From positions 1 to 28,317 of the IMG/VR virus record IMGVR_UViG_3300010354_000458: a DNA stretch of 28,317 bases. One strand, given 5' to 3'. A program made the translations under genes and the position numbers. Numbering within the stretch: position 1 is the first letter of the stretch; each line of letters starts with the position of its first letter. This document shows positions 3,838 through 20,351 of the stretch, piece by piece. Origin of the DNA: a virus. A model generated the notes under the pieces. That model was given only the letters and a program-made list of their open reading frames with translations. It searched no databases and had not been told where the DNA came from.

Positions 3838-3866
3838 TTGACTTTTTACAAAAAAATCTGTAAACT
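3838..3866 (+). promoter_or_regulatory. Sigma70-type promoter at the start of the 3874 gene
   Basis: TTGACT (3838-3843), a 17-base spacer and TAAACT (3861-3866) form a promoter directly after the terminator. The expected transcription start falls at about 3873-3874, the first base of the ATG, and no ribosome-binding site is seen, so the message may be leaderless. Confidence 0.6.
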
Positions 3867-3873
3867 AACTGTT

Positions 3874-5064
3874 ATGACAACTGTTGATAACTTATTGATC
3901 GAAATTTTAAACTCTTCCAATAAAGAGTTTGAAAAAACAATGCTGTCTCGAGATTTAAAAATTTTAAAAAGCCTTGGTAAATCAATTTTAGGTAATTTTT
4001 TTATCACAGAAAATCAATCAAGACTGCTGGTTAAAATTCTTAAAGAAAATTGCGGAAAAATTAGTAATTTTTCTGAAAAAATTAAGGCCTCAGTAGATGA
4101 GCCAAGTTGGTCAAAGCCTTTTAGGAAAATTAATGTGATTAAAAAATTTTATATTTCAAATAATAATGATCACACCCAAGTGTTAAATTTAGAATTTACA
4201 TACTCTGGGCAAATTAGGAGAATTTTGACCGAAAATTCTAAGAAAATTGAAAATTTACAAAGTTTGTATAACGGTAAAATTTATCAGGCTGACTTAACTG
4301 AAAAAAATATTGTCTTATTGTATGAACTGGTAAAACCATATGATTTTGAAATTCAAGAAACTATCATTAATTTCTATAATACCATAAAATCCTGGTCAAA
4401 AACTGAAATTTTTGACCAATTTTTAATCAGTAACATTGCTAACCAAAACTTTCAAAAATCTATTACAAACGATCTTAGTATTAGTGCTCCGTTAGACGAC
4501 GAGCTATTGTTTGATCGAAGTGTTCGATATCAGTATTTTCTTAAAAAAGAGAAAAAATCACCAGAAACATTAACTGAAAAAATAGCTTTTAGAGAAGATG
4601 CTAAAATATGGATTGATAAAAATCAAATCTCACTAGAAGAAATTTTTTATTCACTTAAAAAATTAAAAAGATTACCGGTACTCATTGTGTTTGATGCAAA
4701 TAATGAAAAAAACTGTTTCGAAGAGTTAAAAAATTTGCATAACAGCCTCATAAAAAATGAAATTTTTAACAATATTGGAATTTATTTTAGATTACCAAAC
4801 AACGACATAGGAACACAATTTAACAAACTAATTGCAGAAAACAATTACAATTGCAACCTTAATCTAGAGACAAAAGTTGTAGGTGTACAGAATGGAAAAA
4901 TACCTAAATTTTTCATAAAAAATGAATGGAAGCCTATGTCTGTTATTAGTATAGGAAATTCTTTAAGACATACTAAAACTGCGGTATACGCCAACTATTG
5001 TGATTTAATTATTACATATACTGATCAACAACCTATTATTGAAAATACAACGCTATGGGAGTAA
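3874..5064 (+). CDS. Hypothetical protein upstream of uvsW
   Basis: A 396-residue protein rich in Lys, Asn, Ile and Phe, with the strongest A+T bias in the window. The ATG at 3874 (MTTVDNLLIEILNSSNKEFE) is preferred; a TTG at 3838 is the -35 box of the promoter. No catalytic motif is evident. The C-terminal part has alternating hydrophobic strands (LPVLIVFDAN, NIGIYFRLPNN, CDLIITYTDQQPI) spaced like a Rossmann-type fold, but I cannot assign a family. It overlaps uvsW by 10 bases, so the two are probably expressed together, which hints at a replication or recombination role. Confidence 0.8.
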   Translation: MTTVDNLLIEILNSSNKEFEKTMLSRDLKILKSLGKSILGNFFITENQSRLLVKILKENCGKISNFSEKIKASVDEPSWSKPFRKINVIKKFYISNNNDHTQVLNLEFTYSGQIRRILTENSKKIENLQSLYNGKIYQADLTEKNIVLLYELVKPYDFEIQETIINFYNTIKSWSKTEIFDQFLISNIANQNFQKSITNDLSISAPLDDELLFDRSVRYQYFLKKEKKSPETLTEKIAFREDAKIWIDKNQISLEEIFYSLKKLKRLPVLIVFDANNEKNCFEELKNLHNSLIKNEIFNNIGIYFRLPNNDIGTQFNKLIAENNYNCNLNLETKVVGVQNGKIPKFFIKNEWKPMSVISIGNSLRHTKTAVYANYCDLIITYTDQQPIIENTTLWE

Positions 5065-6524
5065 AATTAATTATTAGGGATGAAGTAAACATTAAATTTG
5101 AGGGTCTCCCATTAGACGCTCGTAAAAAACTTGTCTCTACTTTTAAATACGAAGATCCGACTGCTAGATATCGTCCAGCATATAAATTAGGACGGTGGGA
5201 CGGATCTATTAGTCTGTTTGGCCTCGGCGGCAATGGCTATTTAAATCAATTAGAAAGATGTTTTGAAGTACTAGGGAATCTTGGTATTAGCATAGATGAT
5301 CTTGAAGATCATAGAACTCCTATAAAAATTGAGTTTCAATCAGTAACAAACAATTACTGGGCAGATCAAGGAAAAGTATGGCCAAAAGGACATAGATTTG
5401 AAGGTCAACCTATTACGTTACGAGATGATCAAGTTGAAGTTATAAATCGATTTTTTACTAACACTCAAGCTCTGCAAGAAGTAGCAACAGGCGCTGGAAA
5501 AACAATCATGACAGCAACGCTAGCCCATTGTGCAGAAAAGTATGGTAGAACTGTTACGATTGTTCCTAATAAAGATCTAGTTACACAAACAGAAGAAGAT
5601 TTTGTTAACGTTGGTTTAGACGTTGGAGTCTATTTTGGTGATCGAAAAATGATTGGCCATACACATACTATTTGTACATGGCAAAGTTTAAATGTGTTAG
5701 ATAAGAAATCTAAAAACTGGGATTTAGAAGAAGCACTATCACTGGCAGAATTTTTACACGGTGTCCAAACTGTTATTGTTGACGAAGTACATATGGCTAA
5801 AGCAGATGTGCTAAAAAATCTGTTAACACATAACTTTTCAGGAACACCTATTAGATGGGGATTAACTGGTACTATACCTAAGAATGCGTTTGAGGCAGAG
5901 CCTATTTTTGCCAGCATAGGACCGGTAATTGGTGGTATTGCTGCACACGAATTACAGGACATGGGAATATTATCCGGGTGTCATGTTAATGTACTGCAAC
6001 TATTAGATTTACCTGAATTTAAATCTTATGCAGATGAATTAAAATATCTTGTTACAAACAAAGAAAGAATAGGGTACATTAGTAAACTAATTACAAAACT
6101 TGGTCAATCTGGCAATACTTTAGTTCTAGTTAATAGAATTGACACTGGAAATTTATTAATAGAGCAAATAACAGATAGTGTATTTGTTAGTGGCGAAGTT
6201 AAAGCAAAAGATAGAAAAGAAGAATATGATGAAGTTAAAATTTCAGACAACAAGATTATTGTGGCGACTTATGGTGTGGCCGCTGTGGGTATTAATATCC
6301 CTCGTATTTTTAATTTGGTTCTTCTGGAGCCCGGAAAAAGCTTTACAAGGGTTATACAATCGATTGGGCGAGGCATTAGAAAAGCTGAAGATAAAGACCA
6401 CGTAGAAATTTGGGACATTACTAGCACTTGCAAATATGCTAAACGTCATCTAACTGAGCGAAAAAAATACTATAAGGAAGCCAAGTACCCGTTTACTATA
6501 GAAAAGGTTGATTGGCAAAAATAA
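5055..6524 (+). CDS. uvsW: ATP-dependent helicase UvsW (SF2)
   Basis: A 489-residue superfamily 2 helicase close in length to T4 UvsW (503), which processes R-loops and branched DNA and helps switch from origin-dependent to recombination-dependent replication. Motifs in order: an N-terminal DNA-binding domain, RDDQ Q-motif near 123, Walker A ATGAGKT at 144-150, DEVH box in TVIVDEVHMAK, LTGT motif III, and a C-terminal helicase domain with ATYGVAAVGINIP and the arginine finger motif QSIGRGIRK. All key residues are present. It overlaps the upstream gene and slightly overlaps the likely alternative start of the next gene. Confidence 0.95.
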   Translation: MGVKLIIRDEVNIKFEGLPLDARKKLVSTFKYEDPTARYRPAYKLGRWDGSISLFGLGGNGYLNQLERCFEVLGNLGISIDDLEDHRTPIKIEFQSVTNNYWADQGKVWPKGHRFEGQPITLRDDQVEVINRFFTNTQALQEVATGAGKTIMTATLAHCAEKYGRTVTIVPNKDLVTQTEEDFVNVGLDVGVYFGDRKMIGHTHTICTWQSLNVLDKKSKNWDLEEALSLAEFLHGVQTVIVDEVHMAKADVLKNLLTHNFSGTPIRWGLTGTIPKNAFEAEPIFASIGPVIGGIAAHELQDMGILSGCHVNVLQLLDLPEFKSYADELKYLVTNKERIGYISKLITKLGQSGNTLVLVNRIDTGNLLIEQITDSVFVSGEVKAKDRKEEYDEVKISDNKIIVATYGVAAVGINIPRIFNLVLLEPGKSFTRVIQSIGRGIRKAEDKDHVEIWDITSTCKYAKRHLTERKKYYKEAKYPFTIEKVDWQK

Positions 6525-7290: not shown

Positions 7291-7759
7291 AAAAGTTGAA
7301 CTAAAAGAAAAATTGCAAGCAGTAGACGAAAACATTCGTGAACTATGGGATGCCATGGATGCTGACAATCAAAAAGCATTAAAAAACGAATTTTTTATTT
7401 TAAATCGATATATTAGTAGTGCTAAAACTGGCAACAGAGAAGTTCAAGAACATTTTGTTCTAACAGTTAATGAATACTTTAATAAAAACTGGAACTTGTT
7501 ACAAAAACATCCTAAGCTATTATGGTTATTGCTGTGTATGTGTAGTTACGATAAAAAAACACAATTTTTTCATGAGTGGATAGGACATAAAAGAAAAGGC
7601 ACCGGCGGCAAGAAAGTTAAATTTTTAGAAGAGCTCTATCCCAATAAGAAAAAAGACGAAATAGAGCTTTTAGCAGAAATAAGCAGTGACAAAGACATAA
7701 AAGACTTAGCTAGAAAATATGGCTACGACGAAGCTACTATTGCTAAAAAATTAAAATGA
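7283..7759 (+). CDS. Possible clamp-loader small subunit (gp62-like)
   Basis: A 158-residue helical protein. The order of features (an N-terminal NEFF segment, a Phe/Leu-rich helical middle with HPKLLWLLLCM, then FHEWIGHKRKGTGGKK and a C-terminal helix DIKDLARKYGYDEATI) is loosely collinear with T4 gp62, the A subunit of the sliding-clamp loader. The similarity is from memory and weak in places, so the call is tentative. Gp44, its usual partner, is not in the window. The alternative is an unassigned phage protein. It overlaps the next gene by ATGA. Confidence 0.4.
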   Translation: MSEKVELKEKLQAVDENIRELWDAMDADNQKALKNEFFILNRYISSAKTGNREVQEHFVLTVNEYFNKNWNLLQKHPKLLWLLLCMCSYDKKTQFFHEWIGHKRKGTGGKKVKFLEELYPNKKKDEIELLAEISSDKDIKDLARKYGYDEATIAKKLK

Positions 7760-8451
7760 TTAATTTAATGGTCGATAAACCTTACAAATGTCAATATTGT
7801 AATACTGGCTTCTCTAAAGAGAAAACATTAACAGTGCATGTCTGTGAGCAAAAACGCAGAGCCTTAGCACAGTCTGAAAGACACGTTGTATTAGGGTTTG
7901 ACACTTACAATAGATTTTACAAGTTAACACAAAATTCAAAAGTTGACAAAACTTATGAAGATTTCCGTAAAAGTTCTTATTATAATGCATTTGTCAAGTT
8001 CGGTAGTTTTGTTAGTAATGTAAACCCATTGTATCCAGATAAATTTATTGACTTTGTTATAACTAGCGGAGTAAAATTAGATCAATGGTGCAGAGACGAG
8101 CTATATGACAAATATGTTGTTGACTTAGTTAAAAGAGAAACAGTAGAGACTGCATTAGAAAGAACAATAAAGCATATGATCACATGGGGTGAACAAAATA
8201 ATGCTATTTGGAATCACTACTTTTTATATGTTAGTCTTAACAGAGCAGCATATGACATTAAAGACGGAAAAATAAGCCCCTGGGTAGTGTTGAATTCTAA
8301 CAGTGGAAAATCTATGCTTAAAAATTTTAACGACGAGCATTTGTCTGCAATAACAGCTATTATGGACGTACCTTTCTGGATGAATAAATTTAAAAAATTA
8401 CCTGCTGATGTAGAATTAGTTAAACAAGTTGTTAGAGAGTCTAATATATAA
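7756..8451 (+). CDS. Hypothetical protein with N-terminal zinc-finger-like motif
   Basis: A 231-residue protein. Near the N-terminus CQYC followed after 15 residues by HVC (within KCQYCNTGFSKEKTLTVHVC) resembles a C2H2/C2HC zinc finger, a common DNA- or RNA-binding unit. The rest is helical and Trp/Tyr-rich (FVKFGSFVSNVNPLYPDKFI). I recall homologues as unnamed proteins in aquatic T4-like phages, but no function. An alternative ATG is at 7768. It starts in an ATGA overlap and its final base overlaps the start of the DnaE-like gene. Confidence 0.75.
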   Translation: MINLMVDKPYKCQYCNTGFSKEKTLTVHVCEQKRRALAQSERHVVLGFDTYNRFYKLTQNSKVDKTYEDFRKSSYYNAFVKFGSFVSNVNPLYPDKFIDFVITSGVKLDQWCRDELYDKYVVDLVKRETVETALERTIKHMITWGEQNNAIWNHYFLYVSLNRAAYDIKDGKISPWVVLNSNSGKSMLKNFNDEHLSAITAIMDVPFWMNKFKKLPADVELVKQVVRESNI

Positions 8452-9029
8452 TGCCTGATATTGATATTGATTTTCCAGATAGATCATCTGCTCTTAAAAA
8501 TTTTCAACACGTTGCTGCGGCTATTGTTGAAGATCATACTGTTAAAAAACATAACACTGGAATTTATGTTACATCTATACCACATAATCCGTTTACAGGC
8601 ATAAGTACAATCGACTACAAAGAAGCAGAAGATAGAGGTTATTTTAAAATAGACTTTTTAAATGTTAGTGTCTATGAAGGTGTAAGAAATCAAGAACATC
8701 TTAAACAATTAATGGAGACTGAACCGCTATGGGAATTACTTTTGGACGACCAATTCACAAGTCTGTTATTTCATTTGAACGGCCATGGTGCAATTCTGAG
8801 AAAGACCTGCCCTACTTCCGTGGAACAATTAGCTGCCGTCCTAGCTATGATCCGCCCCGGGAAGAGACACCTGATTGGGAAGACATGGACGGAGATAATG
8901 CAGGAGATTTGGATTCCGCCAGAGACTGGTGAATATCATTTCAAAAAATCACATGCTATAGCATATGCACATGTAGTCATAGTACAAATGAATCTTATTT
9001 GCGAGTCGATTAGTTACGAGTACAGTTAA
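8451..9029 (+). CDS. Miniature DnaE-like protein (Pol III alpha motifs)
   Basis: A 192-residue protein that keeps, in order, the signature motifs of the catalytic core of bacterial DNA polymerase III alpha: PDIDIDF (residues 2-8, the two catalytic Asp of DnaE), HNTGIYV (34-40, like the HAAGVVI segment), KIDFL (66-70, like KFDFL with the third Asp), LLFHLNG (105-111, like VFQLES), LAMIRPG (131-137, like LFRPGP) and FKKSHAIAYA (164-173, like FNKSHAAAYA). In E. coli DnaE these span several hundred residues, so most of the palm insertions, fingers and the whole PHP, beta-binding and OB regions are absent. The ATG sits exactly at the first motif. Whether it polymerises DNA is unknown. It is convergent with the next gene (4-base overlap). 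Confidence 0.75.
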   Translation: MPDIDIDFPDRSSALKNFQHVAAAIVEDHTVKKHNTGIYVTSIPHNPFTGISTIDYKEAEDRGYFKIDFLNVSVYEGVRNQEHLKQLMETEPLWELLLDDQFTSLLFHLNGHGAILRKTCPTSVEQLAAVLAMIRPGKRHLIGKTWTEIMQEIWIPPETGEYHFKKSHAIAYAHVVIVQMNLICESISYEYS

Positions 9030-9400
9030 CGAACTTTACGCACTAACTGCACCGATTTTCTCTTAACCCGTTTAATAGTTAAATTCATTAAATTTACTAC
9101 TGGTCCTAAAATAATGTTAGTGTCTTTGCTATTAAAGGTTTTGATAGCATAAGAATAAGGTTGCAGTTGCTGCCTACAAAAAATATTGATAGGAAATTGT
9201 CTATTACTTTCCCACCACCAAGTTTCTCCTATATCTAAAAATATAGTTTTCTCTTCCGGAGTCTTGATAGCATTTAGATCGTAAAAACTAGTTACGTATT
9301 GATCTTGGTTTATTATTATTCCCACATATTCATTTTCGCCATAGGAAATAACACTTATAAAAGGGAATTTTTCTTCTATATTGTCTCTTAATTTTGCCAT
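9026..9400 (-). CDS. Hypothetical protein on the opposite strand
   Basis: A 124-residue protein (MAKLRDNIEEKFPFISVISYGENEYVG...) with a beta-rich first half containing FLDIGETWWWESNRQFPINIF and a basic C-terminus (LTIKRVKRKSVQLVRKVR). Function not recognised. It is the only - strand gene in the left 16 kb. It converges on the DnaE-like gene and is divergent from the virion protein gene with only 26 bases between their starts. No clear ribosome site is visible. Confidence 0.65.
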   Translation of the reverse strand: MAKLRDNIEEKFPFISVISYGENEYVGIIINQDQYVTSFYDLNAIKTPEEKTIFLDIGETWWWESNRQFPINIFCRQQLQPYSYAIKTFNSKDTNIILGPVVNLMNLTIKRVKRKSVQLVRKVR

Positions 9401-10539: not shown

Positions 10540-11550
10540 ATGAGCCTTATCTCTGACACATTATTATCTCACCTTCCACACAAAAGGAAGAAAACTCCTA
10601 GCGGTTGGATAAGTTTCAATGCTCCCTGTTGCGGAGATAAAAGACAACGTGGCGGGTTCATTATAAATTCAGGTGACGCTGTTTCTTATCATTGTTTTAA
10701 TTGCGGATATAAAGCCAGCTGGCAACCAGGCCGGCAGATAAGTCAAAAATTAAGTAAACTATTAAGGCTACTTAATGTCCCCGATGATATAATCAATCAA
10801 CTTAGACTAGAAGCATTGCGCTTAGATGAAAATTCTACAACAGAAATTCGTAGTGTTATTCCTAAATTTGAAGAACGAGCATTACCAATGGATGCTAAAA
10901 GTCTCGAAGAATGGAGTACTTGGATTGAGCTACAAGGTTGGGAAAATACTGATCAAGACCTAATAAACGCATTTTGTTATTTAAGAAATATTAGACATAT
11001 AGATCCGTACAGCTATCCGTTTTATTGGACTAATAAAATTGGTTTTAAAAATAGGATTATAATTCCGTTTTACAAAGATAATAAAATTGTTGGGTGGACT
11101 GCTAGAGCTACTAATGATGCTAAGCCTAAGTTTATTAGTGAACAACAGCCAGGATATGTGTTTAATTTAGATAGGCAAACTGCTAATAAAGAATTTGTTA
11201 TTGTATGTGAAGGACCGTTTGATGCAATAAGCATTGACGGCTGTGCAGTACTTGGTGCTGAAATTAAAGATAGTCAAAATTGGTTATTAAAACAATTAGG
11301 TAAAGAAATCATATGGGTACCTGACAGAGATCACGAAGGGCCAAGAACAGTTGAACAAGCAATAGAATATGGTTGGTCGGTTAGTATGCCTAATTGGCCT
11401 GAAGGTATTAAAGATATCAATGACGCAGTTGTGAAACTTGGACGGTTATCAACTTTATGGCTAATTACAAGTGCTAAAGAATCTAATTCTCTCAAGATTC
11501 AATTACAGGCAAAAAAATGGTTTAGGAGTAATAATGAAGAAAATAATTAA
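10540..11550 (+). CDS. 61: DNA primase (T4 gp61-like)
   Basis: A 336-residue DnaG-type primase, close to T4 gp61 (342), making RNA primers for lagging-strand synthesis together with the gp41 helicase. The N-terminal zinc-binding site is C30-C31 with C52 and C55 (APCCGDK ... YHCFNCGYK). The TOPRIM catalytic core shows the acidic FVIVCEGPFDAISIDG and WVPDRDHEG segments that bind metal ions. TAAGG lies 7 bases before the start. The helicase gene is three genes downstream. Confidence 0.93.
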   Translation: MSLISDTLLSHLPHKRKKTPSGWISFNAPCCGDKRQRGGFIINSGDAVSYHCFNCGYKASWQPGRQISQKLSKLLRLLNVPDDIINQLRLEALRLDENSTTEIRSVIPKFEERALPMDAKSLEEWSTWIELQGWENTDQDLINAFCYLRNIRHIDPYSYPFYWTNKIGFKNRIIIPFYKDNKIVGWTARATNDAKPKFISEQQPGYVFNLDRQTANKEFVIVCEGPFDAISIDGCAVLGAEIKDSQNWLLKQLGKEIIWVPDRDHEGPRTVEQAIEYGWSVSMPNWPEGIKDINDAVVKLGRLSTLWLITSAKESNSLKIQLQAKKWFRSNNEENN

Positions 11551-11647
11551 TTTTTTGCTGACCCCTTGGCGTCGTTGGCAAGAACATAAAAAATTTAAGA
11601 AACGATTAGAAGAACTTAGAAAACGAGATCCTTTCATATACAAATGA
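11534..11647 (+). CDS. 37-residue basic small protein
   Basis: This short gene has an AGGAG site 5 bases before its ATG. Its product starts MKKIINFLLTPWRRWQEHKK and ends in LRKRDPFIYK: a short hydrophobic start followed by a strongly basic helix. It overlaps the primase end by 17 bases and the carbamoyltransferase start by ATGA, so it is well embedded. I recall similar small proteins ending in DPFIYK in aquatic T4-like phages. The function is unknown; it may be an amphipathic membrane- or nucleic-acid-binding peptide. Confidence 0.75.
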   Translation: MKKIINFLLTPWRRWQEHKKFKKRLEELRKRDPFIYK

Positions 11648-13119
11648 TTACCTGGGGAATATCAGCAAACAGTCACGATGCAGCATTAGCTGTATTCCTT
11701 GACGAAAAACTAGCTTTTGCTAGTCATAGCGAACGTTTTAGTAGAAAAAAGAACGACAAAGATTTATGCAAAGAATTAATTAGCTATGCAAAGGAAAATT
11801 TTTATGGTCTTCCAGATCAAGTTTATTGGTATGAAAATCCGTACTTAAAAACTGTAAGACAATTATATGCAGGACAAGGCTGGAAGTGGTCTGATAACAA
11901 TATTAAAAAATATCTTAAGGACTACGGAATTATTAGTGATATAAAATATAATCAACATCATCATAGCCATGCAGCACTAGGATATCATACTAGCGGTTTT
12001 AGTGATGCCTGTGTTATTGTTATAGATGCTATTGGCGAATTTGAAACTCTTACCGTATGGAAAGGCCAAGGCCTTAAATTAAAAAAGGTCTATAGTAAAT
12101 GGTTCCCAAATAGTATAGGATTGTTCTACAGTGCTATTACACAACGCATTGGTCTTAAACCTTTAGAAGATGAATATATCTTAATGGGTATGGCTGCATA
12201 CGGAGATCCTGATAAATTTTATCCTAAAATGCTACACGATTTTGTTGGCAAATATTACGACTTTTCGTTTGCTAGGAATTTACACAGAGGATGTTTAGAT
12301 TGGGCTCCAGAATTAACTGTACAGGACAGTTTTGACATTGCTGCTACTACACAATTAATATATGAACGATATTTTCAAGAAGTATTAAAGCTAGGAAAAA
12401 AGCTAGTAAATTCTAGTAATCTAGTAGTAATGGGCGGATGTGCATTAAATTGTCTAGGTAACAGAATCACCGGTGAGTACTTTGATAAGACATGGATATA
12501 TCCTAATCCCGGTGATGCTGGTAGTGCAATTGGCGCAGTATTAGCTAAGAAACCTAACTGGCGTGATCATACCGACTGGTCAAATCCTTATTTAGGCTAT
12601 GACATGGGGTATAAAGAAGATAACAGCACTATTGTAAAATATCTACAGACTAATTCTATTTGTGGGCTTGCAAGAGGGCGTGCAGAATTTGGTCCTAGGG
12701 CGTTAGGTAATCGCAGTTTACTAGCAGACCCACGCGGATCTAAAATAAAGGATACAGTAAATGCAATCAAGCAACGACAAGAATTTAGACCCTTTGCTCC
12801 AGCAATTTTGGAAGAGTTGGTTAATGATTACTTTGATATGCCTAACGGCTGGAATAATAGTAGGTATATGCAAGTCATCGCTCGTTGTAAGCATCCTGAC
12901 CTATTTCCTGCTATCGTCCATAGGGACGGTACTAGTCGTGTACAAACTGTACCACAAGACGGATCACCATTTAGGAAATTATTAGAACTTTGGTACAAAG
13001 AAACAGGATGTCCAATGTTATTAAACACTAGCCTTAATATCAAAGGCCAGCCAATGGTTAACGATTTAAATGACGCAAGAGAATTTGAACGGAAATATAA
13101 TGTTGTTGTTTTTACGTAA
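11644..13119 (+). CDS. Carbamoyltransferase (NodU/CmcH family)
   Basis: A 491-residue NodU/CmcH/TobZ-type O-carbamoyltransferase. The family activates carbamoyl phosphate with ATP and transfers the carbamoyl group to a hydroxyl. Seen motifs: HHHSHA (105-110) in the N-terminal Kae1-like domain, VVMGGCALN, the highly conserved GRAEFGPRALGNRSLLADPR, FRPFAPAIL and the C-terminal LLNTSLNIKGQPMV. All expected catalytic segments appear intact, though the family is often slightly longer. Phage members have been linked, as I recall, to carbamoylation of 5-hydroxymethylcytosine in DNA; a sugar or other small molecule is an alternative substrate. It lies between primase and helicase genes. Confidence 0.9.
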   Translation: MITWGISANSHDAALAVFLDEKLAFASHSERFSRKKNDKDLCKELISYAKENFYGLPDQVYWYENPYLKTVRQLYAGQGWKWSDNNIKKYLKDYGIISDIKYNQHHHSHAALGYHTSGFSDACVIVIDAIGEFETLTVWKGQGLKLKKVYSKWFPNSIGLFYSAITQRIGLKPLEDEYILMGMAAYGDPDKFYPKMLHDFVGKYYDFSFARNLHRGCLDWAPELTVQDSFDIAATTQLIYERYFQEVLKLGKKLVNSSNLVVMGGCALNCLGNRITGEYFDKTWIYPNPGDAGSAIGAVLAKKPNWRDHTDWSNPYLGYDMGYKEDNSTIVKYLQTNSICGLARGRAEFGPRALGNRSLLADPRGSKIKDTVNAIKQRQEFRPFAPAILEELVNDYFDMPNGWNNSRYMQVIARCKHPDLFPAIVHRDGTSRVQTVPQDGSPFRKLLELWYKETGCPMLLNTSLNIKGQPMVNDLNDAREFERKYNVVVFT

Positions 13120-13139: not shown

Positions 13140-14573
13140 ATGACTAAACAAAATGCAGATTATGGTTATGAAATACAAAAGTTATATTTAGAAATGCTTC
13201 TAAATAATGCAGAAACTTTTGTCAGATGCCAAAGTATATTTGATCACACACTATTTGATAGGAAGCTACAAACTGCTGCCAAATACATAAACGACTATGT
13301 AGACACTAATCGTGTTATGCCTACATATGACATGGTTAATGCCAGTACTAACAGTGACTTTAAAAATCCTGGTGATTTACAAGAAAATCATTATGATTGG
13401 CTGTTAAACGAGTTTGAAACATTTATAAGACATAAAGGTCTAGAACGTGCTATTTTAGAGTCAGCAGATTTACTTGAAAAAGGCGAATATGGCCCAGTTG
13501 AAGAGCTAGTTAAAAAAGCTGTTCAAGTTGGTATTAACAAGGACATGGGTACAGATTATTGGAGTGATCCTCGTGGCCGATTGATGAAGATTAAAGATAA
13601 AAATGGTCAAGTATCTACTGGATGGAAATCAGTAGATGACAAGTTATTCGGCGGTATGAACAGAGGAGAACTCAATATTTTTGCTGCTGCTAGTGGTGGC
13701 GGAAAGAGTTTGTTCTTAGCTAACCTAGGAGTAAACTGGGCACTACAAGGGTTGAATGTTATCTACTTGACATTTGAACTTAGTGAAGAGCTAGTGTCGA
13801 TGCGTGTTGATGCAATGGTAACTGGAATACCTACTAGAGAGATTTTTAAAAGCATTGACGATGTTGAAATGAAAGTTAAAATGATTGGCAAAAAATCAGG
13901 CAGCTTTCAAGTCAAGTACATGCCCAGTGGTAAAAATGCCAATGACATTCGTGCTTATCTAAAAGAGTATGAAATCAAACTGGGTAAAAAGCCTGACGTT
14001 CTGTTAGTAGATTATCTAGATCTTATGATGCCTATCAGTAGAAAGATTAGTGCAGAAAACTTGTTTATTAAAGATAAGTTTGTATCAGAAGAATTACGCA
14101 ATTTAGCCATGGAACGTAACTGTATATTTGTTACAGCCAGCCAGTTAAATCGTGGTGCTGTTGAAGAAGTTGAATTTGATCACAGTCATATTTCAGGCGG
14201 ATTGAGTAAAATTCAAACTGCTGATAACGTGTTTGGTATCTTTACTAGCCGTGCTATGCGTGAACGTGGCAGATATCAAATACAATTAATGAAAACTCGT
14301 TCATCAAGTGGTGTTGGACAAAAAATTGACCTTGAATTTAACCTTGATAGTTTACGTATCTCAGATCTTGATGAACAAGAAGGTTATGGTAATAGTTCTA
14401 CTCCTAGTGCAGGAACTAGTTTACTTAACCAAATTAAAAATAGACAAACAGTTGATCCTAATACAGGAGAAATTAATCCTATGACAGGAGCAGCAGTACC
14501 AAAAGTCAAAGCAGAAGTACAGAGTACTAAATTAAGAGAACTGCTTAACAACTTGCCTAATGACGATTTGTAA
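13140..14573 (+). CDS. 41: Replicative DNA helicase (T4 gp41-like)
   Basis: A 477-residue DnaB/RecA-fold hexameric helicase, matching T4 gp41 (475) in length; it unwinds the fork and works with gp61 primase. The N-terminal domain (1-140) is helical. The motor domain has GWKSVDDKLFGGMNRGEL, Walker A AASGGGKSL (183-191), YLTFELSEELVSMR, a Walker B-like VLLVDYLDLM and the DnaB-type TASQLNRGAVEE and SGGLSKIQTADNVFGI motifs. The Pro/Thr-rich C-terminal tail may bind partner proteins. Confidence 0.95.
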   Translation: MTKQNADYGYEIQKLYLEMLLNNAETFVRCQSIFDHTLFDRKLQTAAKYINDYVDTNRVMPTYDMVNASTNSDFKNPGDLQENHYDWLLNEFETFIRHKGLERAILESADLLEKGEYGPVEELVKKAVQVGINKDMGTDYWSDPRGRLMKIKDKNGQVSTGWKSVDDKLFGGMNRGELNIFAAASGGGKSLFLANLGVNWALQGLNVIYLTFELSEELVSMRVDAMVTGIPTREIFKSIDDVEMKVKMIGKKSGSFQVKYMPSGKNANDIRAYLKEYEIKLGKKPDVLLVDYLDLMMPISRKISAENLFIKDKFVSEELRNLAMERNCIFVTASQLNRGAVEEVEFDHSHISGGLSKIQTADNVFGIFTSRAMRERGRYQIQLMKTRSSSGVGQKIDLEFNLDSLRISDLDEQEGYGNSSTPSAGTSLLNQIKNRQTVDPNTGEINPMTGAAVPKVKAEVQSTKLRELLNNLPNDDL

Positions 14574-14580
14574 TAACTTT

Positions 14581-14588
14581 TATAAATA
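14581..14588 (+). promoter_or_regulatory. T4-type late promoter (perfect TATAAATA)
   Basis: TATAAATA at 14581-14588 matches the T4 late box exactly and lies 27 bases before the preferred ATG at 14616. It marks the switch from replication genes to late-type genes. Confidence 0.75.
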
Positions 14589-14615
14589 ACTACGTAGTTT
14601 ATGAAAGGCTATAAC

Positions 14616-15059
14616 ATGGAACTCTATCATGTTAAAAATCTACAAGACCCCCTTACAAAAGTAATTAAAGACGACCCGGTTAGACCGCATATACCTCTAG
14701 AACAACGTATTAACGATGATGCTGAACTGTTGATTCTTAAATCTGGAGATCAAGTACTGGCAGCTACCTGCTGGCAATGGCTCAGCGATGTGCCCAAAGA
14801 TGAACAAGATCTGATTAGGCTGAATAAATCTCACGAAGTAGCAGTTTTCTACACCATCTGGAGTTACAGTCCTGGCGCAGGCGCACAATTGTTACGAGAG
14901 GCAGCTGAATGGATTAAACACGAACATTCATCAGTAAAAACTATAGTTACACTTAGTCCACAAACAGAAATGGCCCGTAAATTTCATTTAAAAAATGGTG
15001 CTAGAATACGCAGGGAAAACCCTACCAGTGTAAATTACGAATACTACCATAAAGAATGA
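14616..15059 (+). CDS. GNAT-like acetyltransferase-related protein
   Basis: A 147-residue protein with features of the GNAT acetyl-CoA fold: a central strand, a GAGAQLLREAAEWI segment in the position of the CoA-binding loop and helix, and TLSPQTEMARKFHLKNGA like the final helix and strand. The ATG at 14616 is chosen because GAAAGG lies 8 bases upstream; the ATG at 14601 has no such site. The protein substrate is unknown. It has its own late promoter, so it may act late in infection or be packaged. Confidence 0.65.
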   Translation: MELYHVKNLQDPLTKVIKDDPVRPHIPLEQRINDDAELLILKSGDQVLAATCWQWLSDVPKDEQDLIRLNKSHEVAVFYTIWSYSPGAGAQLLREAAEWIKHEHSSVKTIVTLSPQTEMARKFHLKNGARIRRENPTSVNYEYYHKE

Positions 15060-15070
15060 TTTTTTGATTT

Positions 15071-15078
15071 GGTAAATA
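15071..15078 (+). promoter_or_regulatory. Weak late-promoter-like box
   Basis: GGTAAATA matches the late box in 6 of 8 positions and lies 6 bases before the ATG at 15085. No ribosome site is visible between. The assignment rests on the pattern seen at neighbouring genes. Confidence 0.35.
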
Positions 15079-15084
15079 CAAATT

Positions 15085-16512
15085 ATGAAAGTCAAAGAGC
15101 TTACAGAACGAACTGGTACATACAAGCCTTACGAAGATCCTAACGCCAAGGGTCCTAATGGGGAAGCATTGTTAGTTGATCTTCGGGGTCGAGTAGGTTA
15201 TTGGAAACAGCAAGGTCGTGCTAGAAATTTCATTGCCTATGACCCTAAGGCTCAACAGTCAACCACAGTAGATCAGCCTGAGCCAGACGCACTAACTGCC
15301 ATGCAGGGAACCCCTATGAGTGATCCAGGCAGTCCCGAAGCACAAAAAGCTCTTACTAGAACTTTACTAAGTTTATTACCGGGCATTGGTACAGCATTAG
15401 ATGTTGAAGATGCTATTGCTGCTGCCAAAAAAGGTGAGTTAGGTGATGCGGCAACAGCCAGTGTGTTTGCCGCATTGGGCCTTATACCCGTTGTTGGTGC
15501 ACCGGGTAGAGCAGCTCTAAAAGCTGCTAAAGAATTTGTTCAAAATACGCCCGGCTTTTTACAAAGAGCCAAAGGCATTAAACCAGCGCCTGCTAGAGTT
15601 GACCCGCCGCTTGATCCAGCACCGGGATCAGTGGCAGCACATAGGGCACAAATTGATAAAGCATATCCACCTCCTGCTACTGGATCCTCTGGTAGAGTTG
15701 AACCTCAATTAGGTAATACTGCTACTACTGGTGCCAACAGATTAGATCCTAGAGTTGACCCGCCGCCCATCAAACCAGAAGCAGATCCAGCAAGAATTGC
15801 CACATTAGCTGGAGTTACTACAGCAGCAGGCACAGCAGGTAAATTAGCCGGCAAGGGCGACGAAGTAAGTGATATAGCTAGAGTAGCTAATGCATCAGAC
15901 ACGACAGCAGATGCTGGCCGAGCCGCTAGAGCTGCTGATGATGTACCTACTGCAACAGTAGCTAAAACAGCTGATGAAGTTCCGGCGGCTGCGAGTGCGG
16001 CCAGAACAGCTGGTAAAGGTGATGATGTAGCAGACGCCAGTCGAGCAACTAACAAAGTAGATGATGCGGCTGCTGCTGGCAAGCGCAGTGATGATATCAA
16101 AGGTGCGGCTCCGGTAGCAGCCGCTGGAGGAAGATTGGCCAGCAAAGCAGACAATGTAGCCGATGCTGGCAAACTTACACGAGCACAACGAGCTGCTATT
16201 GCCGGTGGCGCAGCAGCTGGGGCCGCTGGAATAGGCTATTTGGCCAATAAACCTAATTCAGCAGCTGACTCTACTGGTCAAGCAGCCATGCCCGCAGATA
16301 AACCTAATCTAGACACATTGTCATTTGGTCAGGCATTTGCTCAAGCACGCCGACTGGCAGCACAACAGGGCCGTGCTGGACAGGGTCAATTTACCTGGAG
16401 AGGCAAACAATATCAGACCAACATCGAAGGCGAGCCCTATGTAGCAGCAGACCAACAGATTAAAATTAACGAATCTGATCTGTTGTTTAGAATCAAAAGC
16501 CTTATAAAATAA
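15085..16512 (+). CDS. Ala-rich virion-type protein with pre-toxin-like hydrophobic segment
   Basis: A 475-residue protein in several parts. The N-terminal 70 residues are polar. Residues about 90-150 hold LLSLLPGIGTALDVEDAI and ASVFAALGLIPVVGAPGR, a Gly/Ala hydrophobic hairpin like the pre-toxin segments before toxin domains in polymorphic toxins and in some injected phage proteins. A long Ala/Asp/Lys stretch follows with repeated ADDV/GKGDDVADA-like units and another hydrophobic patch (IAGGAAAGAAGIGYLAN). The end is a small conserved-looking domain (GQFTWRGKQYQTNIEGEPY) and the tail INESDLLFRIKSLIK. No catalytic residues are apparent. It may be an ejected virion protein. Confidence 0.65.
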   Translation: MKVKELTERTGTYKPYEDPNAKGPNGEALLVDLRGRVGYWKQQGRARNFIAYDPKAQQSTTVDQPEPDALTAMQGTPMSDPGSPEAQKALTRTLLSLLPGIGTALDVEDAIAAAKKGELGDAATASVFAALGLIPVVGAPGRAALKAAKEFVQNTPGFLQRAKGIKPAPARVDPPLDPAPGSVAAHRAQIDKAYPPPATGSSGRVEPQLGNTATTGANRLDPRVDPPPIKPEADPARIATLAGVTTAAGTAGKLAGKGDEVSDIARVANASDTTADAGRAARAADDVPTATVAKTADEVPAAASAARTAGKGDDVADASRATNKVDDAAAAGKRSDDIKGAAPVAAAGGRLASKADNVADAGKLTRAQRAAIAGGAAAGAAGIGYLANKPNSAADSTGQAAMPADKPNLDTLSFGQAFAQARRLAAQQGRAGQGQFTWRGKQYQTNIEGEPYVAADQQIKINESDLLFRIKSLIK

Positions 16513-16524
16513 ACAAAAAGCCTA

Positions 16525-16532
16525 ATAAATAA
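16525..16532 (+). promoter_or_regulatory. Late-promoter-like box before 16537 gene
   Basis: AATAAATA (7 of 8 to TATAAATA) lies 4 bases before the ATG at 16537. If it acts as a late promoter the message would be almost leaderless. No ribosome site is seen. Confidence 0.4.
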
Positions 16533-16536
16533 ACAT

Positions 16537-16965
16537 ATGGATGATCAGCACAATGTCCGTATGTTTCAACAGTTGTTAGACAATTGTTACAGCAGTCATG
16601 GTTGGGCAATACCCAGTCATATTACTCATTATCAAGCTAGAATACTAGCACAGATGATTGATCAACCTCGTTGGCGTCCTGAGCCCAGTTACGCCGAACG
16701 TTACTTTCAAATACGCACTCCTTCAGAAGCTATAGAACTAGGCGATGTCTGTTGGTTTACTCGTGCAGTATTTCCTGAACTGGGCACAGGCAGAGGCATA
16801 ACGCCCACTTACTATGCACAGTTGGGAGCCAGCTGTTATGAACGTGCATTAAAGTACAGCCAACTGCCTACTATAGCTGTACTAGCTCGACACTTTGAAT
16901 TTCTAGCTGAAGCTGCCTATACCGCAGTTAGATTAAACGGCGAATTTCGCAGCATGTGGGATTAA
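16537..16965 (+). CDS. Hypothetical phage protein
   Basis: A 142-residue, mostly helical protein rich in Tyr, His and Arg (MDDQHNVRMFQQLLDNCYSS...). Several conserved-looking segments (ELGDVCWFTRAVFPELGTGRGITPTYY) suggest a folded domain, but I do not recognise the family. It converges on the SGNH hydrolase gene with a 4-base overlap of the 3' ends. Confidence 0.65.
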   Translation: MDDQHNVRMFQQLLDNCYSSHGWAIPSHITHYQARILAQMIDQPRWRPEPSYAERYFQIRTPSEAIELGDVCWFTRAVFPELGTGRGITPTYYAQLGASCYERALKYSQLPTIAVLARHFEFLAEAAYTAVRLNGEFRSMWD

Positions 16966-17585
16966 AGAAATTTATTAACATGTTCGGCCCATGCAGTTTG
17001 GCCTTGAGCAGTAGTATGTCCGGATTCCATTCGGCCGTAGCCCAACTCGTCGCAATAACGAGCCATGCTATGATCAGGGGGTAACAGCCAATTGTTAGGT
17101 AAGTAACCAGAAGCAGTCAGCAGTTCTGGTTTAGTCCATAGGGAATTAAAATTTAAAAATTTTATATTCTTGTAACGGCAAAGATCCTGTAGAATCATTA
17201 GATTATGATAAAAAGATTGGTATTGCAACTTTTGACTGTACATGTGGTTATAGTAAATAGTTCTAAAAGTTTCTATATTTTCTACAGGGTCTCCATTGTC
17301 AAAAATACCAACACCATGTGCAGTTATTCGAAAATATCGACCCGATTCTGAAGGAAATTCATACCTATCTAGAGTAGACCACCCTATGATTAAATGCGTG
17401 ATATTAGTTGTTTCTGTGCTGTAAAGGTATTCGATAGTTGTACGAAAAATACGTTGATTACTGCTGCCCCCAATGGCTAGATTCGTTACATCCAGTCCCC
17501 AAGAAGCCAGTTTAGAAGGCCAAAGATCTTCACGGCTGGGGTAGGTTTTTCCACCAGTCCAACTGTCGCCATTTACCAATATCAT
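16962..17585 (-). CDS. SGNH/GDSL-type hydrolase
   Basis: A 207-residue protein with an SGNH-hydrolase arrangement: block I VNGDSWTGG with the likely nucleophile Ser8, block II Gly in LAIGGSSNQ, an Asn/Asp-containing IGWSTLDR at block III, and a C-terminal catalytic His in SGHTTAQGQTAWAEH. The family cleaves ester or acetyl groups on sugars and lipids. In a phage it may modify host surface glycans or decorate the tail, but no virion domain is visible. AAGGA lies 8 bases upstream of the start at 17585. Confidence 0.75.
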   Translation of the reverse strand: MILVNGDSWTGGKTYPSREDLWPSKLASWGLDVTNLAIGGSSNQRIFRTTIEYLYSTETTNITHLIIGWSTLDRYEFPSESGRYFRITAHGVGIFDNGDPVENIETFRTIYYNHMYSQKLQYQSFYHNLMILQDLCRYKNIKFLNFNSLWTKPELLTASGYLPNNWLLPPDHSMARYCDELGYGRMESGHTTAQGQTAWAEHVNKFL

Positions 17586-17601
17586 AACTTTTCCTTTTTG
17601 G

Positions 17602-17609
17602 TATTTAGC
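17602..17609 (-). promoter_or_regulatory. Late-promoter-like box for the SGNH gene
   Basis: On the - strand GCTAAATA (6 of 8 to TATAAATA) lies about 16 bases before the start at 17585, with an AAGGA ribosome site between. Together with the box at 17684 it makes this 110-base gap a divergent late promoter region. Confidence 0.4.
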
Positions 17610-17683
17610 GGGGCACCAGTAGATCCAAGACCGCGAAGCGGACAGCGGTAAACGCGATTTTTAGCGTTCCGATGACCAAACCC

Positions 17684-17691
17684 CATAAATA
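17684..17691 (+). promoter_or_regulatory. T4-type late promoter box before the Gly-rich protein
   Basis: CATAAATA (7 of 8) lies only 4 bases before the ATG at 17696. The expected RNA start falls at or just past this ATG, which favours either a leaderless message or the downstream GTG start at 17720. Confidence 0.5.
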
Positions 17692-17695
17692 CTAG

Positions 17696-18319
17696 ATGGG
17701 AATCATAACAAAAGGTATAGTGGCCAAAGGCATAATAGGCGGAACTCCTGTTAATGCAGCACAGTTTGACAGTGTGGGCTCGGGCTCATTCACTGTGCCC
17801 GCAGGCATAACAGCAGTGACCATGCAGATATGGGGTGCTGGCGGCGGCAGTGGCGGGGGCGGCTTTATTGAAGGCGGTGGTGGAGGAGGAGGCGGTGGCT
17901 ACGTCAGCAAGCTACTGACAGTGACTCCGGGACAGGTGATTACTTTTATTGTAGGTACTGGCGGTGCTGCTGGCGGTTACAATGGAGTTGGACAGACTGT
18001 GGGCACAGCAGGCGGCAACAGTTCAACCAGTGGACCAAGTGCTAGTATGATTGCTGGAGGTGGACAGGGCGGTGGAGATGGCACAGGCGGTGCAGGTGGT
18101 ACAGCATCAGGCGGCGATGTCAATACTGTAGGACAATCTGGTTTTGGCAGTTTCCAAGGTGTCAACAGCTATAAAGGTGGACTGGCTGGTAACAGTCCAA
18201 ACGCACAGGCCAACAGTACTACATCACCGTTTAACGGTATACAGCCGGGTGGTGGGCAAGGTGGCGGTATTGACTTTACTGGCAAGGGCGGTGACGGTCG
18301 AGTTAGATTTACATGGTAA
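17696..18319 (+). CDS. Gly-rich tail fibre tip or adhesin-like protein
   Basis: A 207-residue protein. The pattern [24 protein letters not shown] followed by many Gly runs, then [14 protein letters not shown], matches the glycine-rich domain found at the ends of phage tail fibres and related adhesins, where it forms the receptor-binding tip. The end [13 protein letters not shown] is typical of the domain. Two starts are possible: ATG 17696, or GTG 17720 with AAAGG 4 bases upstream, which fits the late box better. It converges with the lipoprotein gene. Confidence 0.75.
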
Positions 18320-18470
18320 CAGTAGATCGCTGCTGGTAAACACAGTTATTATAAGCCTGTGTGTACTTGGTTAACTGCTGACTCGCACAGTATTTCCTAG
18401 CTGCGATTAAACTGGGATTGGCACAGCCCAGAATGCTGACTGCTATAAACATGAGTATGATGGTTTTCAT
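18309..18470 (-). CDS. Small lipoprotein (53 residues)
   Basis: The product starts [20 protein letters not shown], a lipoprotein signal with lipobox ILGC and lipidated Cys16, giving a mature peptide of about 38 residues with two further Cys. A longer in-frame ORF reaches 18572 but lacks a sensible start; the perfect late box at 18478-18485 supports the start at 18470. Possible roles are an outer spanin for lysis or an envelope protein; no inner spanin partner is seen here, so this is open. The 3' end overlaps the fibre gene. Confidence 0.65.
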
Positions 18471-18477
18471 AGTATAA

Positions 18478-18485
18478 TATTTATA
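18478..18485 (-). promoter_or_regulatory. T4-type late promoter (perfect TATAAATA) for the lipoprotein
   Basis: The - strand reads TATAAATA exactly, 7 bases before the ATG at 18470. The expected RNA start is within 0-2 bases of the ATG, so the message would be nearly leaderless. Confidence 0.65.
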
Positions 18486-18673
18486 GCTAGAAATGGGTCC
18501 TGTGCCCAAAAAAAATTGCCGCGCAAAAAAAACGGGTGAAGTACTTTGGCTTTCAGCCTGGTGATTTTGCACCGGTATACCGTTTTTTTAGAGTGGAAAA
18601 AATTGAATGCGCTGTTGTATTTTTACAACAGTTTTTATAATATATACCCCCCACCCCCATCGCCACCACAACC
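18486..18673. other. Non-coding gap with facing terminators
   Basis: No gene is seen in this stretch. It is A/T-tract-rich, with a short palindrome CGGTATACCG followed by T7 at 18573-18589 and the + strand terminator at 18612-18636. It ends in a C-rich stretch (18647-18665) just left of the - strand terminator. It appears to insulate the late + strand block from the early - strand block. Confidence 0.6.
18612..18636 (+). terminator. Intrinsic terminator at the end of the late block
   Basis: An 8-bp stem CTGTTGTA/TACAACAG (18612-18619 with 18624-18631) with a TTTT loop is followed by T5. It stops + strand transcripts that read past the Gly-rich fibre gene. Confidence 0.8.
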
Positions 18674-18723
18674 AAAAAAAATCCCCTGACCACCGGGAGC
18701 GAATCGGCTTTCGGTCAGGGGAT
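18674..18723 (-). terminator. Intrinsic terminator of the ATPase transcript
   Basis: On the - strand an 11-bp stem (18681-18691 with 18713-18723) is followed directly by T8 (A-run 18674-18681 on the + strand). The loop contains an inner 3-bp stem presenting AUUCGCUCC. This fixes the strand of the hairpin array next to it as -. Confidence 0.88.
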
Positions 18724-18862
18724 CCAACATGGGGAGGAACTGCCTCCCCTCAGGGTTTGACCAGGAGCGAATTGGTCAAACCTTAGACTAGTTACCGGGA
18801 GCGAATCGTTGGCTAGTCTATGTGCAGGGCCGCAGCTCTTTGGGGCTGCTAGCCCGTACAGC
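18681..18862 (-). ncRNA. Five-hairpin 3'UTR element with three identical ATTCGCTCC loops
   Basis: Directly after the ATPase stop codon the - strand RNA can form five tandem hairpins: 18827-18855, 18784-18820, 18754-18782, 18731-18749 and the terminator 18681-18723. In three of them the loop is exactly the same 9 bases (18798-18806, 18764-18772, 18696-18704), read as AUUCGCUCC on the RNA, although the stems differ completely in sequence. Conserved loops on unrelated stems point to selection on the loop. The loop is complementary over 8 bases to GGAGCGAA, the ribosome-site leader of five nearby genes. A trans-acting riboregulator is the inference; a decoy for a protein is the alternative. Confidence 0.65.
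18696..18806. repeat. Three copies of loop motif GGAGCGAAT
   Basis: Exact copies at 18696-18704, 18764-18772 and 18798-18806, each at the apex of a hairpin and each closed by a base pair. The first eight bases recur as the ribosome-site leader of genes starting at 19711, 20318, 20675, 21459 and 22980 on the - strand. Confidence 0.9.
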
Positions 18863-19711
18863 TTAACGCATACAAGTAACCTCTGCATGTCCTTGCCACT
18901 TAGCAGGGAATGCCTGCTTCAAGTCTGCAAGCTTGAGCACCATACGCAAGCTCAGCTCACGCAGTCGACGCTTGTTGGCATCTACAAAGTTGACCAGCTC
19001 AGCCGCACCCGCTTCACCAAACTCATACTTGTCAAGCATGCCATGATCTCGGATCACTTGCTTGATGCGCAGGATCTTCTCACGCTCTGTGTCAATGGTA
19101 AGGTCCAAGTAATGGCAACGGCTTTCCAATGCTTCCAAATGGTCACGCAGTTTCTTAGAGCGCACGTTGTCGAACTTGATGTTGGTAATAAAGATGCAGC
19201 CACCTTTGAACTCAAACGAGCCCGGAATGCCTTCTTGGCGAAGCAGTCGGCTGTCAGTGTTCCAATGGATCATACGCTTGTTGCCACTGTCCAGAGCAGC
19301 CTTCAAGATGTTAAGGCTAAGGTCATCAAGCAGAACACTGTCGCAGTCATCGAACACAAGAATGTTCTTGGGATCTGAGAACGCAAACAGTTTGGCATAC
19401 AAGCCCAGCGCTGACATAGCACCCTTAACCACTTCGTACTTCTTCAGCTTCTCGTTCTGTGCTACATTGGCAAACACATCGTGTCGGCTCAGCTGGCTTT
19501 CAACGCCGTAGCTCTTGCCCACACCCGGAGGGCCCGAAACAATCATAGCACGGATCTTGCCTGCTTTGACTGCACGAGTCATGTCATCAAGAACTTCGAA
19601 ACGACCCTTGAGTCGCTCCATAATTTGTTCATCAGTTTCACGCAGAACCTTGTTAACAGGCTCTTGTGCGAGGCTGAGAACGGATCCTTTGTCTTTGGCA
19701 ATACGCGGCAT
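18863..19711 (-). CDS. AAA+ ATPase
   Basis: A 282-residue AAA+ ATPase. Walker A GPPGVGKS is at residues 60-67, Walker B with NILVFDDCDSVL near 115-126, followed by a sensor-like IFITNIKFD and an RxxH-rich lid region with SLRMVLKLADLKQAF. Such proteins in phages remodel protein or DNA complexes; the exact job is unknown. The start at 19711 is chosen because AAGGAGCGAAAC precedes it; the longer frame to 19768 runs into the promoter. A consensus promoter lies at 19740-19768. The 3'UTR carries the hairpin array, and its loops are complementary to this gene's own ribosome site. Confidence 0.9.
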   Translation of the reverse strand: MPRIAKDKGSVLSLAQEPVNKVLRETDEQIMERLKGRFEVLDDMTRAVKAGKIRAMIVSGPPGVGKSYGVESQLSRHDVFANVAQNEKLKKYEVVKGAMSALGLYAKLFAFSDPKNILVFDDCDSVLLDDLSLNILKAALDSGNKRMIHWNTDSRLLRQEGIPGSFEFKGGCIFITNIKFDNVRSKKLRDHLEALESRCHYLDLTIDTEREKILRIKQVIRDHGMLDKYEFGEAGAAELVNFVDANKRRLRELSLRMVLKLADLKQAFPAKWQGHAEVTCMR

Positions 19712-19739
19712 GTTTCGCTCCTTGTGTGTCAAAAAAGTA

Positions 19740-19768
19740 ATTATACAGTCAGTGTCTGTGTCTGTCAA
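19740..19768 (-). promoter_or_regulatory. Consensus sigma70 promoter for the ATPase gene
   Basis: TTGACA (19763-19768), 17 bases, TATAAT (19740-19745): a perfect match on both boxes and spacing. Leader about 22 bases, with AAGGAGCGAA before the start. Confidence 0.85.
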
Positions 19769-19772
19769 CGGC

Positions 19773-19973
19773 TTATGGAATCACTTCGTAGTGTATCAGC
19801 GCCAATCCTATGGTCACTACCACAGCCAACCCAATCAATCCTAGTGTGCCGCCCATGTGCCAAAGGCCAATACCTGCAAAGCCTAAGGCCATGATGATCA
19901 GCACCTTGCTGAAGAAGATCAGTAGGAAGATAGCTAGGACTATCAACACCACTGCAAAGAATAGTCCTAGCAT
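19773..19973 (-). CDS. Small membrane protein
   Basis: A 66-residue, very hydrophobic protein with two or three predicted membrane segments (FFAVVLIVLAIFLLIFFS, VLIIMALGFAGIGLW, LGLIGLAVVVTIGLALI). Ribosome site AAGGA is 7 bases upstream. It follows the 20318 gene by 9 bases and is probably in its operon. A role in the host membrane, such as superinfection exclusion or holin-like activity, is possible but unsupported. Confidence 0.7.
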   Translation of the reverse strand: MLGLFFAVVLIVLAIFLLIFFSKVLIIMALGFAGIGLWHMGGTLGLIGLAVVVTIGLALIHYEVIP

Positions 19974-19982
19974 GTCTAGTCC

Positions 19983-20318
19983 TTAGTCCAAACGGCTACC
20001 AGCGTAGGCTTCGAAGCCATACTTGCGGAACACATTGGCCGCGGCCTCAGCACCCGCTTCCAGCACGCTCAAGCTCTGCACAGGCACCTTGGCAGGATTC
20101 CACAGCTGGAAGGCCTTGGTGTAGTCCTGGCGCACACCTGCTGCCTTCAGCATCTTGCCCAGCTTGGTGTTGCCTTTGACGCCGTAGATGTTGGTCCAAG
20201 CAAAGCCACAGCAGTCACGGTCACCGTGTTGGGCCAGGAAGTTTCTAGCGGCACGGTTGGCTTCGGACTGAGCTTCGAACACGATTGCGTTGACTTGCTC
20301 TTGGGTGAATGCTTGCAT
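19983..20318 (-). CDS. Hypothetical phage protein
   Basis: A 111-residue protein (MQAFTQEQVNAIVFEAQSEA...) with an Ala-rich helix, a middle segment DRDCCGFAWTNIYGVKGNTK and a C-terminal AGAEAAANVFRKYGFEAYAG. Such proteins occur in the early regions of many phages; I know of no function. It has an exact GGAGCGAA leader and its own promoter, and is followed by the membrane protein gene. Confidence 0.75.
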   Translation of the reverse strand: MQAFTQEQVNAIVFEAQSEANRAARNFLAQHGDRDCCGFAWTNIYGVKGNTKLGKMLKAAGVRQDYTKAFQLWNPAKVPVQSLSVLEAGAEAAANVFRKYGFEAYAGSRLD

Positions 20319-20351
20319 AGTTTCGCTCCTATTGCGTTGTTGATGTAGTCT

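What the first reader, a model, noticed from the sequence alone, without database searches (positions are those of the whole stretch)
8451..9029. Miniature DnaE: Pol III alpha active-site motifs compressed into 192 residues
Six motif blocks of the DnaE catalytic core occur in the right order: PDIDIDF, HNTGIYV, KIDFL, LLFHLNG, LAMIRPG and FKKSHAIAYA, including all three metal-binding Asp positions (D5, D7, D68). The protein starts exactly at the first motif and has no PHP, beta-binding or OB domain. It may be a minimal nucleotidyltransferase, a primer-related enzyme, or a reduced protein that binds host clamp or polymerase partners. Its position next to uvsW and upstream of primase and helicase genes fits a replication role.
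Basis: partly seen in the sequence, partly recalled or inferred. Interest (0 to 1): 0.8.

Follow-up and report, generated by a model that had tools for sequence, protein, structure and literature searches.

The report
Half of a two-gene phage polymerase
The 192-residue protein is not a complete miniature polymerase but the metal-binding half of a bacterial-type DNA polymerase III core that some very large phages encode as two small proteins from separate genes; the split was predicted in print in 2021 and I found no report that it has been tested at the bench.

Summary
The ORF at 8451-9029 is real, and the DnaE motifs are there in order. One correction: by E. coli numbering the metal-binding Asp residues are D3, D5 and D68 (D401, D403, D555). 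D7 is D405, an extra Asp that is invariant in DnaE.

The protein is a clear member of phrog_11778 (E 2.5e-66). Its predicted fold (pLDDT 91) matches only Pol III alpha/PolC, over nearly its whole length. It carries the catalytic strands and a shortened fingers module ending in the steric-gate His (H168). The thumb is gone, and so is the N-terminal palm with the GRGS motif.

That missing piece is a separate ~170-residue gene (phrog_11127). It ends where this protein starts (E. coli residue 392 versus 399/400). All 14 isolate genomes examined carry one copy of each half, 11-224 kb apart, alongside a family B polymerase. All 111 distinct C-half sequences keep the catalytic residues.

So it is most likely one of two subunits of a split, thumb-less C-family polymerase in RaK2/PA5oct/Atu_ph07-type phages. 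Iyer et al. 2021 (PMC7824862) described this system, so the finding is a new member of a known kind. The partner gene is not in this 28 kb fragment. Activity and exact role remain untested.

The parts
8451..9029 (+). C-terminal subunit of a split, thumb-less Pol III alpha core (192 aa; phrog_11778)
8454..8474 (+). PDIDIDF strand: D3 and D5 = E. coli D401/D403 metal ligands; D7 = D405
   Evidence: invariant D3/D5/D7 in 111 distinct homologues; strand E4-8 in the model
8550..8561 (+). H34-G37 (HNTG), counterpart of E. coli H511 region; D7-to-H34 is 27 residues against 106 in E. coli, so the thumb is missing
8646..8660 (+). KIDFL: K66 = K553, D68 = D555 (third metal ligand)
   Evidence: K66 and D68 invariant in 111; strand E67-71
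8847..8861 (+). MIRPG fingers block; R135-P136 = E. coli R639-P640
   Evidence: R135/P136 invariant; HMM colinearity with Mtb DnaE1
8940..8969 (+). FKKSHAIAYA, fingers O-helix; H168 = steric-gate H760, Y172 = Y764
   Evidence: H168 and Y172 invariant in 111; steric gate per PMC8485763
7756..8451 (+). upstream gene, phrog_11058, weak C2H2 zinc-finger signature; conserved neighbour, possible partner (inference)
9026..9400 (-). convergent gene phrog_11637, 3' ends overlap by 4 bp; conserved next to the C-half (weak match in Slicko01)
5055..6524 (+). UvsW-type helicase (context)
   Evidence: phrog_16, E 7e-70
10540..11550 (+). DnaG/gp61-type primase (context)
   Evidence: phrog_47, E 9e-46
13140..14573 (+). 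DnaB/gp41-type helicase (context)
   Evidence: phrog_19, E 2.6e-69

Best explanation
The protein is the C-terminal, metal-ion- and template-binding subunit of a two-gene, thumb-less C-family (Pol III alpha-like) polymerase core of RaK2/PA5oct/Atu_ph07-type large phages. The partner, a ~170-residue protein from a distant gene, supplies the N-terminal palm helices and the GRGS triphosphate loop. The two chains are expected to assemble into one Pol-beta-type nucleotidyltransferase site: GRGS from the partner; D3/D5/D68, K66, R135 and steric-gate H168 from this protein. That site would add dNTPs to a primer. With no thumb, (HhH)2, OB, PHP or clamp-binding region, it should be weakly processive unless recruited by other phage replication or recombination proteins, so a secondary role beside the phage's family B replicase (gap filling, repair or recombination-primed synthesis) is most likely. 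Shown here: homology, breakpoint, conservation, co-occurrence, predicted folds of each half. Inferred: assembly, catalysis, recruitment and biological role.
For: Family profile E 2.5e-66 and phrog_405 match. AlphaFold model pLDDT 91, pTM 0.76; the 15 PDB entries at the head of the structural comparison are all Pol III alpha or PolC, Z 9.8-6.3, 177-190 residues aligned, best unrelated row Z 4.0. Partner half: profile aligns to E. coli DnaE residues 273-392, PF07733 above cut-off over roughly positions 13-96 of 260, model matches Pol III alpha (E. coli 278-393) with Z up to 10.8, best unrelated row 2.1. The breakpoint is complementary: partner ends at E. coli 392, this protein starts at 399/400. 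Both halves once each in 14/14 isolate genomes; PolB in all of them. D3, D5, D7, H34, G37, K66, D68, R135, P136, H168, Y172 invariant in 111 distinct C-halves; GRGS in all 54 distinct N-halves. Distances of the two halves correlate, r 0.95, 13 genomes. Prior prediction: PMC7824862.
Against: No activity or complex has been measured, and the complex could not be predicted with the tools here. The partner is not in this 28 kb fragment, so pairing in this particular phage is inferred from relatives. E. coli residues 393-399 (NPERVSM), the thumb and most of the fingers are missing, which could abolish ordinary primer extension. The viral-contig sequences were partly recruited by the Asp motif itself, so the bias-free conservation test rests on the isolate genomes. 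The mirror-tree correlation is also what plain vertical inheritance gives.
Confidence: 0.8

Rival explanations
1. The two halves form an active nucleotidyltransferase that is not an ordinary DNA polymerase, for example a terminal transferase, a short-patch filler or a primer-end modifier.
For: Loss of thumb, (HhH)2, OB and clamp-binding regions with a fully kept catalytic set; a family B replicase is present in all examined genomes, so bulk synthesis does not need it.
Against: The steric-gate His and fingers O-helix, which contact the incoming dNTP, are invariant.
Confidence: 0.13
2. It is a catalytically idle decoy that mimics host Pol III alpha and binds the host clamp, epsilon or template to block host replication.
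For: Small size; belongs to a host-type polymerase family.
Against: No clamp-binding, tau-binding or PHP region is present; catalytic residues are invariant in 111 homologues and selection is purifying; an equally conserved GRGS partner accompanies it in all complete genomes examined.
Confidence: 0.04
3. It is a self-sufficient miniature polymerase or nucleotidyltransferase working as a single 192-residue chain.
For: It carries the metal ligands and fingers motifs in a well-predicted fold.
Against: It lacks the GS motif and N-terminal palm helices, which sit in a co-occurring separate gene.
Confidence: 0.03

Closest known systems
Split minimal Pol III alpha of 'group 2.2' jumbo phages (Iyer et al. 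2021, PMC7824862); phrog_11778 + phrog_11127
   Same: Same two-protein arrangement, same phage group (Atu_ph07 and related phages), same family B polymerase and UvsW/DnaB/primase background.
   Different: Only in detail: new member from an uncultured viral contig; here the breakpoint, thumb loss, steric-gate and Asp assignments and co-occurrence are spelled out, and the pair is also found in a circular 141 kb genome (Slicko01), below the usual 200 kb jumbo size.
Bacterial DNA polymerase III alpha (DnaE1/DnaE2/DnaE3, PolC)
   Same: Catalytic Asp triad, D405 (DnaE type, not PolC), K553, R639, steric-gate H760, palm sheet and fingers order.
   Different: One long chain there (E. coli DnaE 1160 residues); here two chains, no PHP, thumb, (HhH)2, OB or C-terminal domain.
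'Truncated' Pol III alpha of phage CBB (CBB_328, PMC5259590) and gp316 of Atu_ph07 (PMC6102473)
   Same: These are the N-half partner of the present protein's family (identified here by size, description and position).
   Different: The N-half was recognised by those authors as Pol III alpha; the C-half was not mentioned as such in the passages read.

Membership tests
phrog_11778 / C-terminal subunit of the split phage Pol III alpha | profile match over nearly the whole length | tested here: met
   E 2.5e-66, residues 3-186 to profile 8-194 of 197
phrog_11778 / C-terminal subunit of the split phage Pol III alpha | starts at the DxDxD strand, no N-terminal palm | tested here: met
phrog_11778 / C-terminal subunit of the split phage Pol III alpha | GRGS partner gene in the same genome | tested here: inconclusive
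   absent from this 28 kb fragment; present in 14/14 isolate genomes and in the two large contigs G004 and G006, whose C-halves are about 70% identical
phrog_11778 / C-terminal subunit of the split phage Pol III alpha | family B polymerase in the same genome | not tested
   the window is a 28 kb fragment and was not searched with PF00136; 16/16 relatives have it
complete C-family DNA polymerase (DnaE/PolC) | catalytic Asp triad D401/D403/D555 | tested here: met
   D3, D5, D68
complete C-family DNA polymerase (DnaE/PolC) | GS motif and N-terminal palm in the same chain | tested here: not met
complete C-family DNA polymerase (DnaE/PolC) | thumb between the two catalytic strands | tested here: not met
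   27 residues from D7 to H34 against 106 in E. coli; model has no thumb
complete C-family DNA polymerase (DnaE/PolC) | PHP and (HhH)2 domains, near universal in the family | tested here: not met
   no Pfam match, protein too short; universality from PMC3919608
complete C-family DNA polymerase (DnaE/PolC) | template-directed DNA synthesis | not testable with these tools
   needs a biochemical assay of the two purified halves

The most novel reading that the evidence does not exclude
The two-gene, thumb-less core is an active second replicative or repair polymerase that works next to the phage family B replicase, regulated by assembly of its two chains. It may represent the smallest functional C-family polymerase, possibly close to an ancestral form from before the PHP, thumb and OB additions.
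Probability: 0.12. Interest if true: 0.75.

Novelty: new member of a known kind. Interest (0 to 1): 0.4.

Why it matters
A replicative-type active site divided between two separately encoded small proteins, with the thumb and all accessory domains removed, would define how little of a C-family polymerase is needed for catalysis and give a ~360-residue two-part system that is easy to assay. It would also help explain why some of the largest known phages keep a bacterial-type polymerase core beside a T4-type replicase. The general fact was predicted in 2021; what is missing is biochemistry.

Tried and rejected
Full-length DnaE elsewhere in these genomes: the phrog_405 search (11 records) and PF07733 search (16 records) found only the two halves above cut-off. 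Fused N+C version: the longest C-half ORF (from its start) among all loci is 216 aa and no N-half is fused to one; the one long hit (L157, 859 aa) is a long DnaE-like ORF of its own. Cellular origin of a standalone C-half: the genome-contig scan gave only weak partial matches (25-35% identity, mostly within residues 20-142), as full-length bacterial DnaE would, and no phage-type full-length match. N-half inside the window: none. Upstream zinc-finger gene as the missing palm half: it belongs to a different family, phrog_11058. Chimeric contig, suggested by the GC shift: the one right-half protein tested has its best matches in PA5oct-type phages, so not supported. Later bench work on the split enzyme: none found in the held library.

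Full report
Observation. ORF 8451-9029 encodes 192 residues and starts in a TAATG overlap with the upstream gene. The protein is a near full-length member of phrog_11778, annotated 'DNA polymerase' (E 2.5e-66), and also matches the long phage Pol III family phrog_405 (E 1.4e-9). Pfam alone gives only sub-threshold finger-domain hits, so profile families and structure were needed.

Residue assignment. Numbering E. coli DnaE from its gene puts PDFDVDF at 400-406, KFDFLG at 553-558, FRPG at 638-641 and FNKSHSAAYA at 756-765. The published metal ligands D401, D403 and D555 (PMC3919608) therefore correspond to D3, D5 and D68 here. D7 corresponds to D405, which the same paper reports as invariant in DnaE but Asn in PolC, so the family is of DnaE type. 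H168 corresponds to H760, the proposed steric gate (PMC8485763). In 111 distinct C-half sequences D3, D5, D7, H34, G37, K66, D68, R135, P136, H168 and Y172 never vary. Because many viral contigs were recruited with the Asp motif, the bias-free part of this test is the isolate genomes retrieved by whole-protein search, which agree.

Fold. The AlphaFold model of the window protein (43-sequence alignment) has pLDDT 91 and pTM 0.76, with catalytic strands 4-8 and 67-71 and a helical fingers part ending in a long C-terminal helix. Foldseek ranks only Pol III alpha/PolC at the top. VIA-align gives Z 9.8-6.3 over 177-190 residues for 15 entries of these enzymes, and the best unrelated row is Z 4.0. 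D7 to H34 spans 27 residues here against 106 in E. coli, so the thumb is absent; P136 to F164 spans 28 against 116, so the fingers are strongly shortened.

The missing half. phrog_405 also lit up a second, ~170-residue gene in the isolate relatives first searched. It is phrog_11127 (E 3e-85), aligns to E. coli DnaE 273-392 including GRGS, and passes the Pfam DNA_pol3_alpha cut-off over roughly the first third of that model. Its model matches Pol III alpha (E. coli 278-393) with Z up to 10.8. It ends at E. coli residue 392 and this protein starts at 399/400, so the two chains tile the core with only about seven residues missing. All 54 distinct N-halves keep GRGS. In isolation the N-half model is least certain around GRGS and the C-terminus, as expected if the other half completes it (inference).

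Distribution and neighbourhood. All 14 isolate genomes examined have exactly one copy of each half, 11-224 kb apart, including a circular 141 kb Alishewanella phage. All also carry a family B polymerase. Distances of the two halves correlate (r 0.95, 13 genomes), which vertical inheritance alone would also give. The C-half usually lies downstream of uvsX/uvsY/uvsW and upstream of primase and DnaB, next to phrog_11058 and a convergent phrog_11637 gene. The N-half lies close to the clamp loader gene in RaK2, PBECO4 and Paride, while in Slicko01 the C-half does. In XacN1 and RAS14 the phrog_11058 gene is nearer the N-half, which ties the three genes together loosely. The window lacks the N-half, but the window is a 28 kb fragment.

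Literature. Iyer et al. [quoted passage not shown] They suggested it may cooperate with the family B enzyme. The CBB paper (PMC5259590) had noted a 172-residue truncated alpha subunit, which by size and position is the N-half, and the Atu_ph07 paper lists gp316 (PMC6102473). I found no experimental follow-up in the held library.

Conclusion. The finding is correct in observation and right in suspecting a replication enzyme. It is most likely one of two subunits rather than a complete miniature enzyme, and it belongs to a published but untested system. Catalysis by the assembled pair is likely from residue conservation; the biological role is inferred.

Noticed in passing
window 9026-9400 (-): phrog_11637, unknown function, convergent to the C-half with a 4 bp overlap of 3' ends; found in all 16 relatives searched (only weakly in Slicko01) and usually abutting the C-half.
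   Followed up: partly
window 7756-8451 (+): phrog_11058, 231 aa with a weak C2H2 zinc-finger signature, in 15 of 16 relatives; next to the C-half in most, nearer the N-half in XacN1 and RAS14. Candidate DNA-binding partner.
   Followed up: partly
window 11644-13119 (+): NodU-like carbamoyltransferase (phrog_1601, E 1.6e-95) inserted between primase and DnaB helicase genes, which are adjacent in several isolate relatives.
   Followed up: no
window 14000-28317: GC rises from about 0.33 to about 0.49, skew changes sign near 18 kb and ORFs become short and mixed-strand; three tRNA genes at 23548-23798. The one right-half protein tested (18866-19768) has its best matches in PA5oct-type phages, so a chimera is not supported.
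   Followed up: partly
window 3838-5064 (+): 408 aa ORF without a clear PHROG family between uvsY and uvsW; in RaK2 and PBECO4 a gene annotated as a polymerase exonuclease subunit sits at this place.
   Followed up: no
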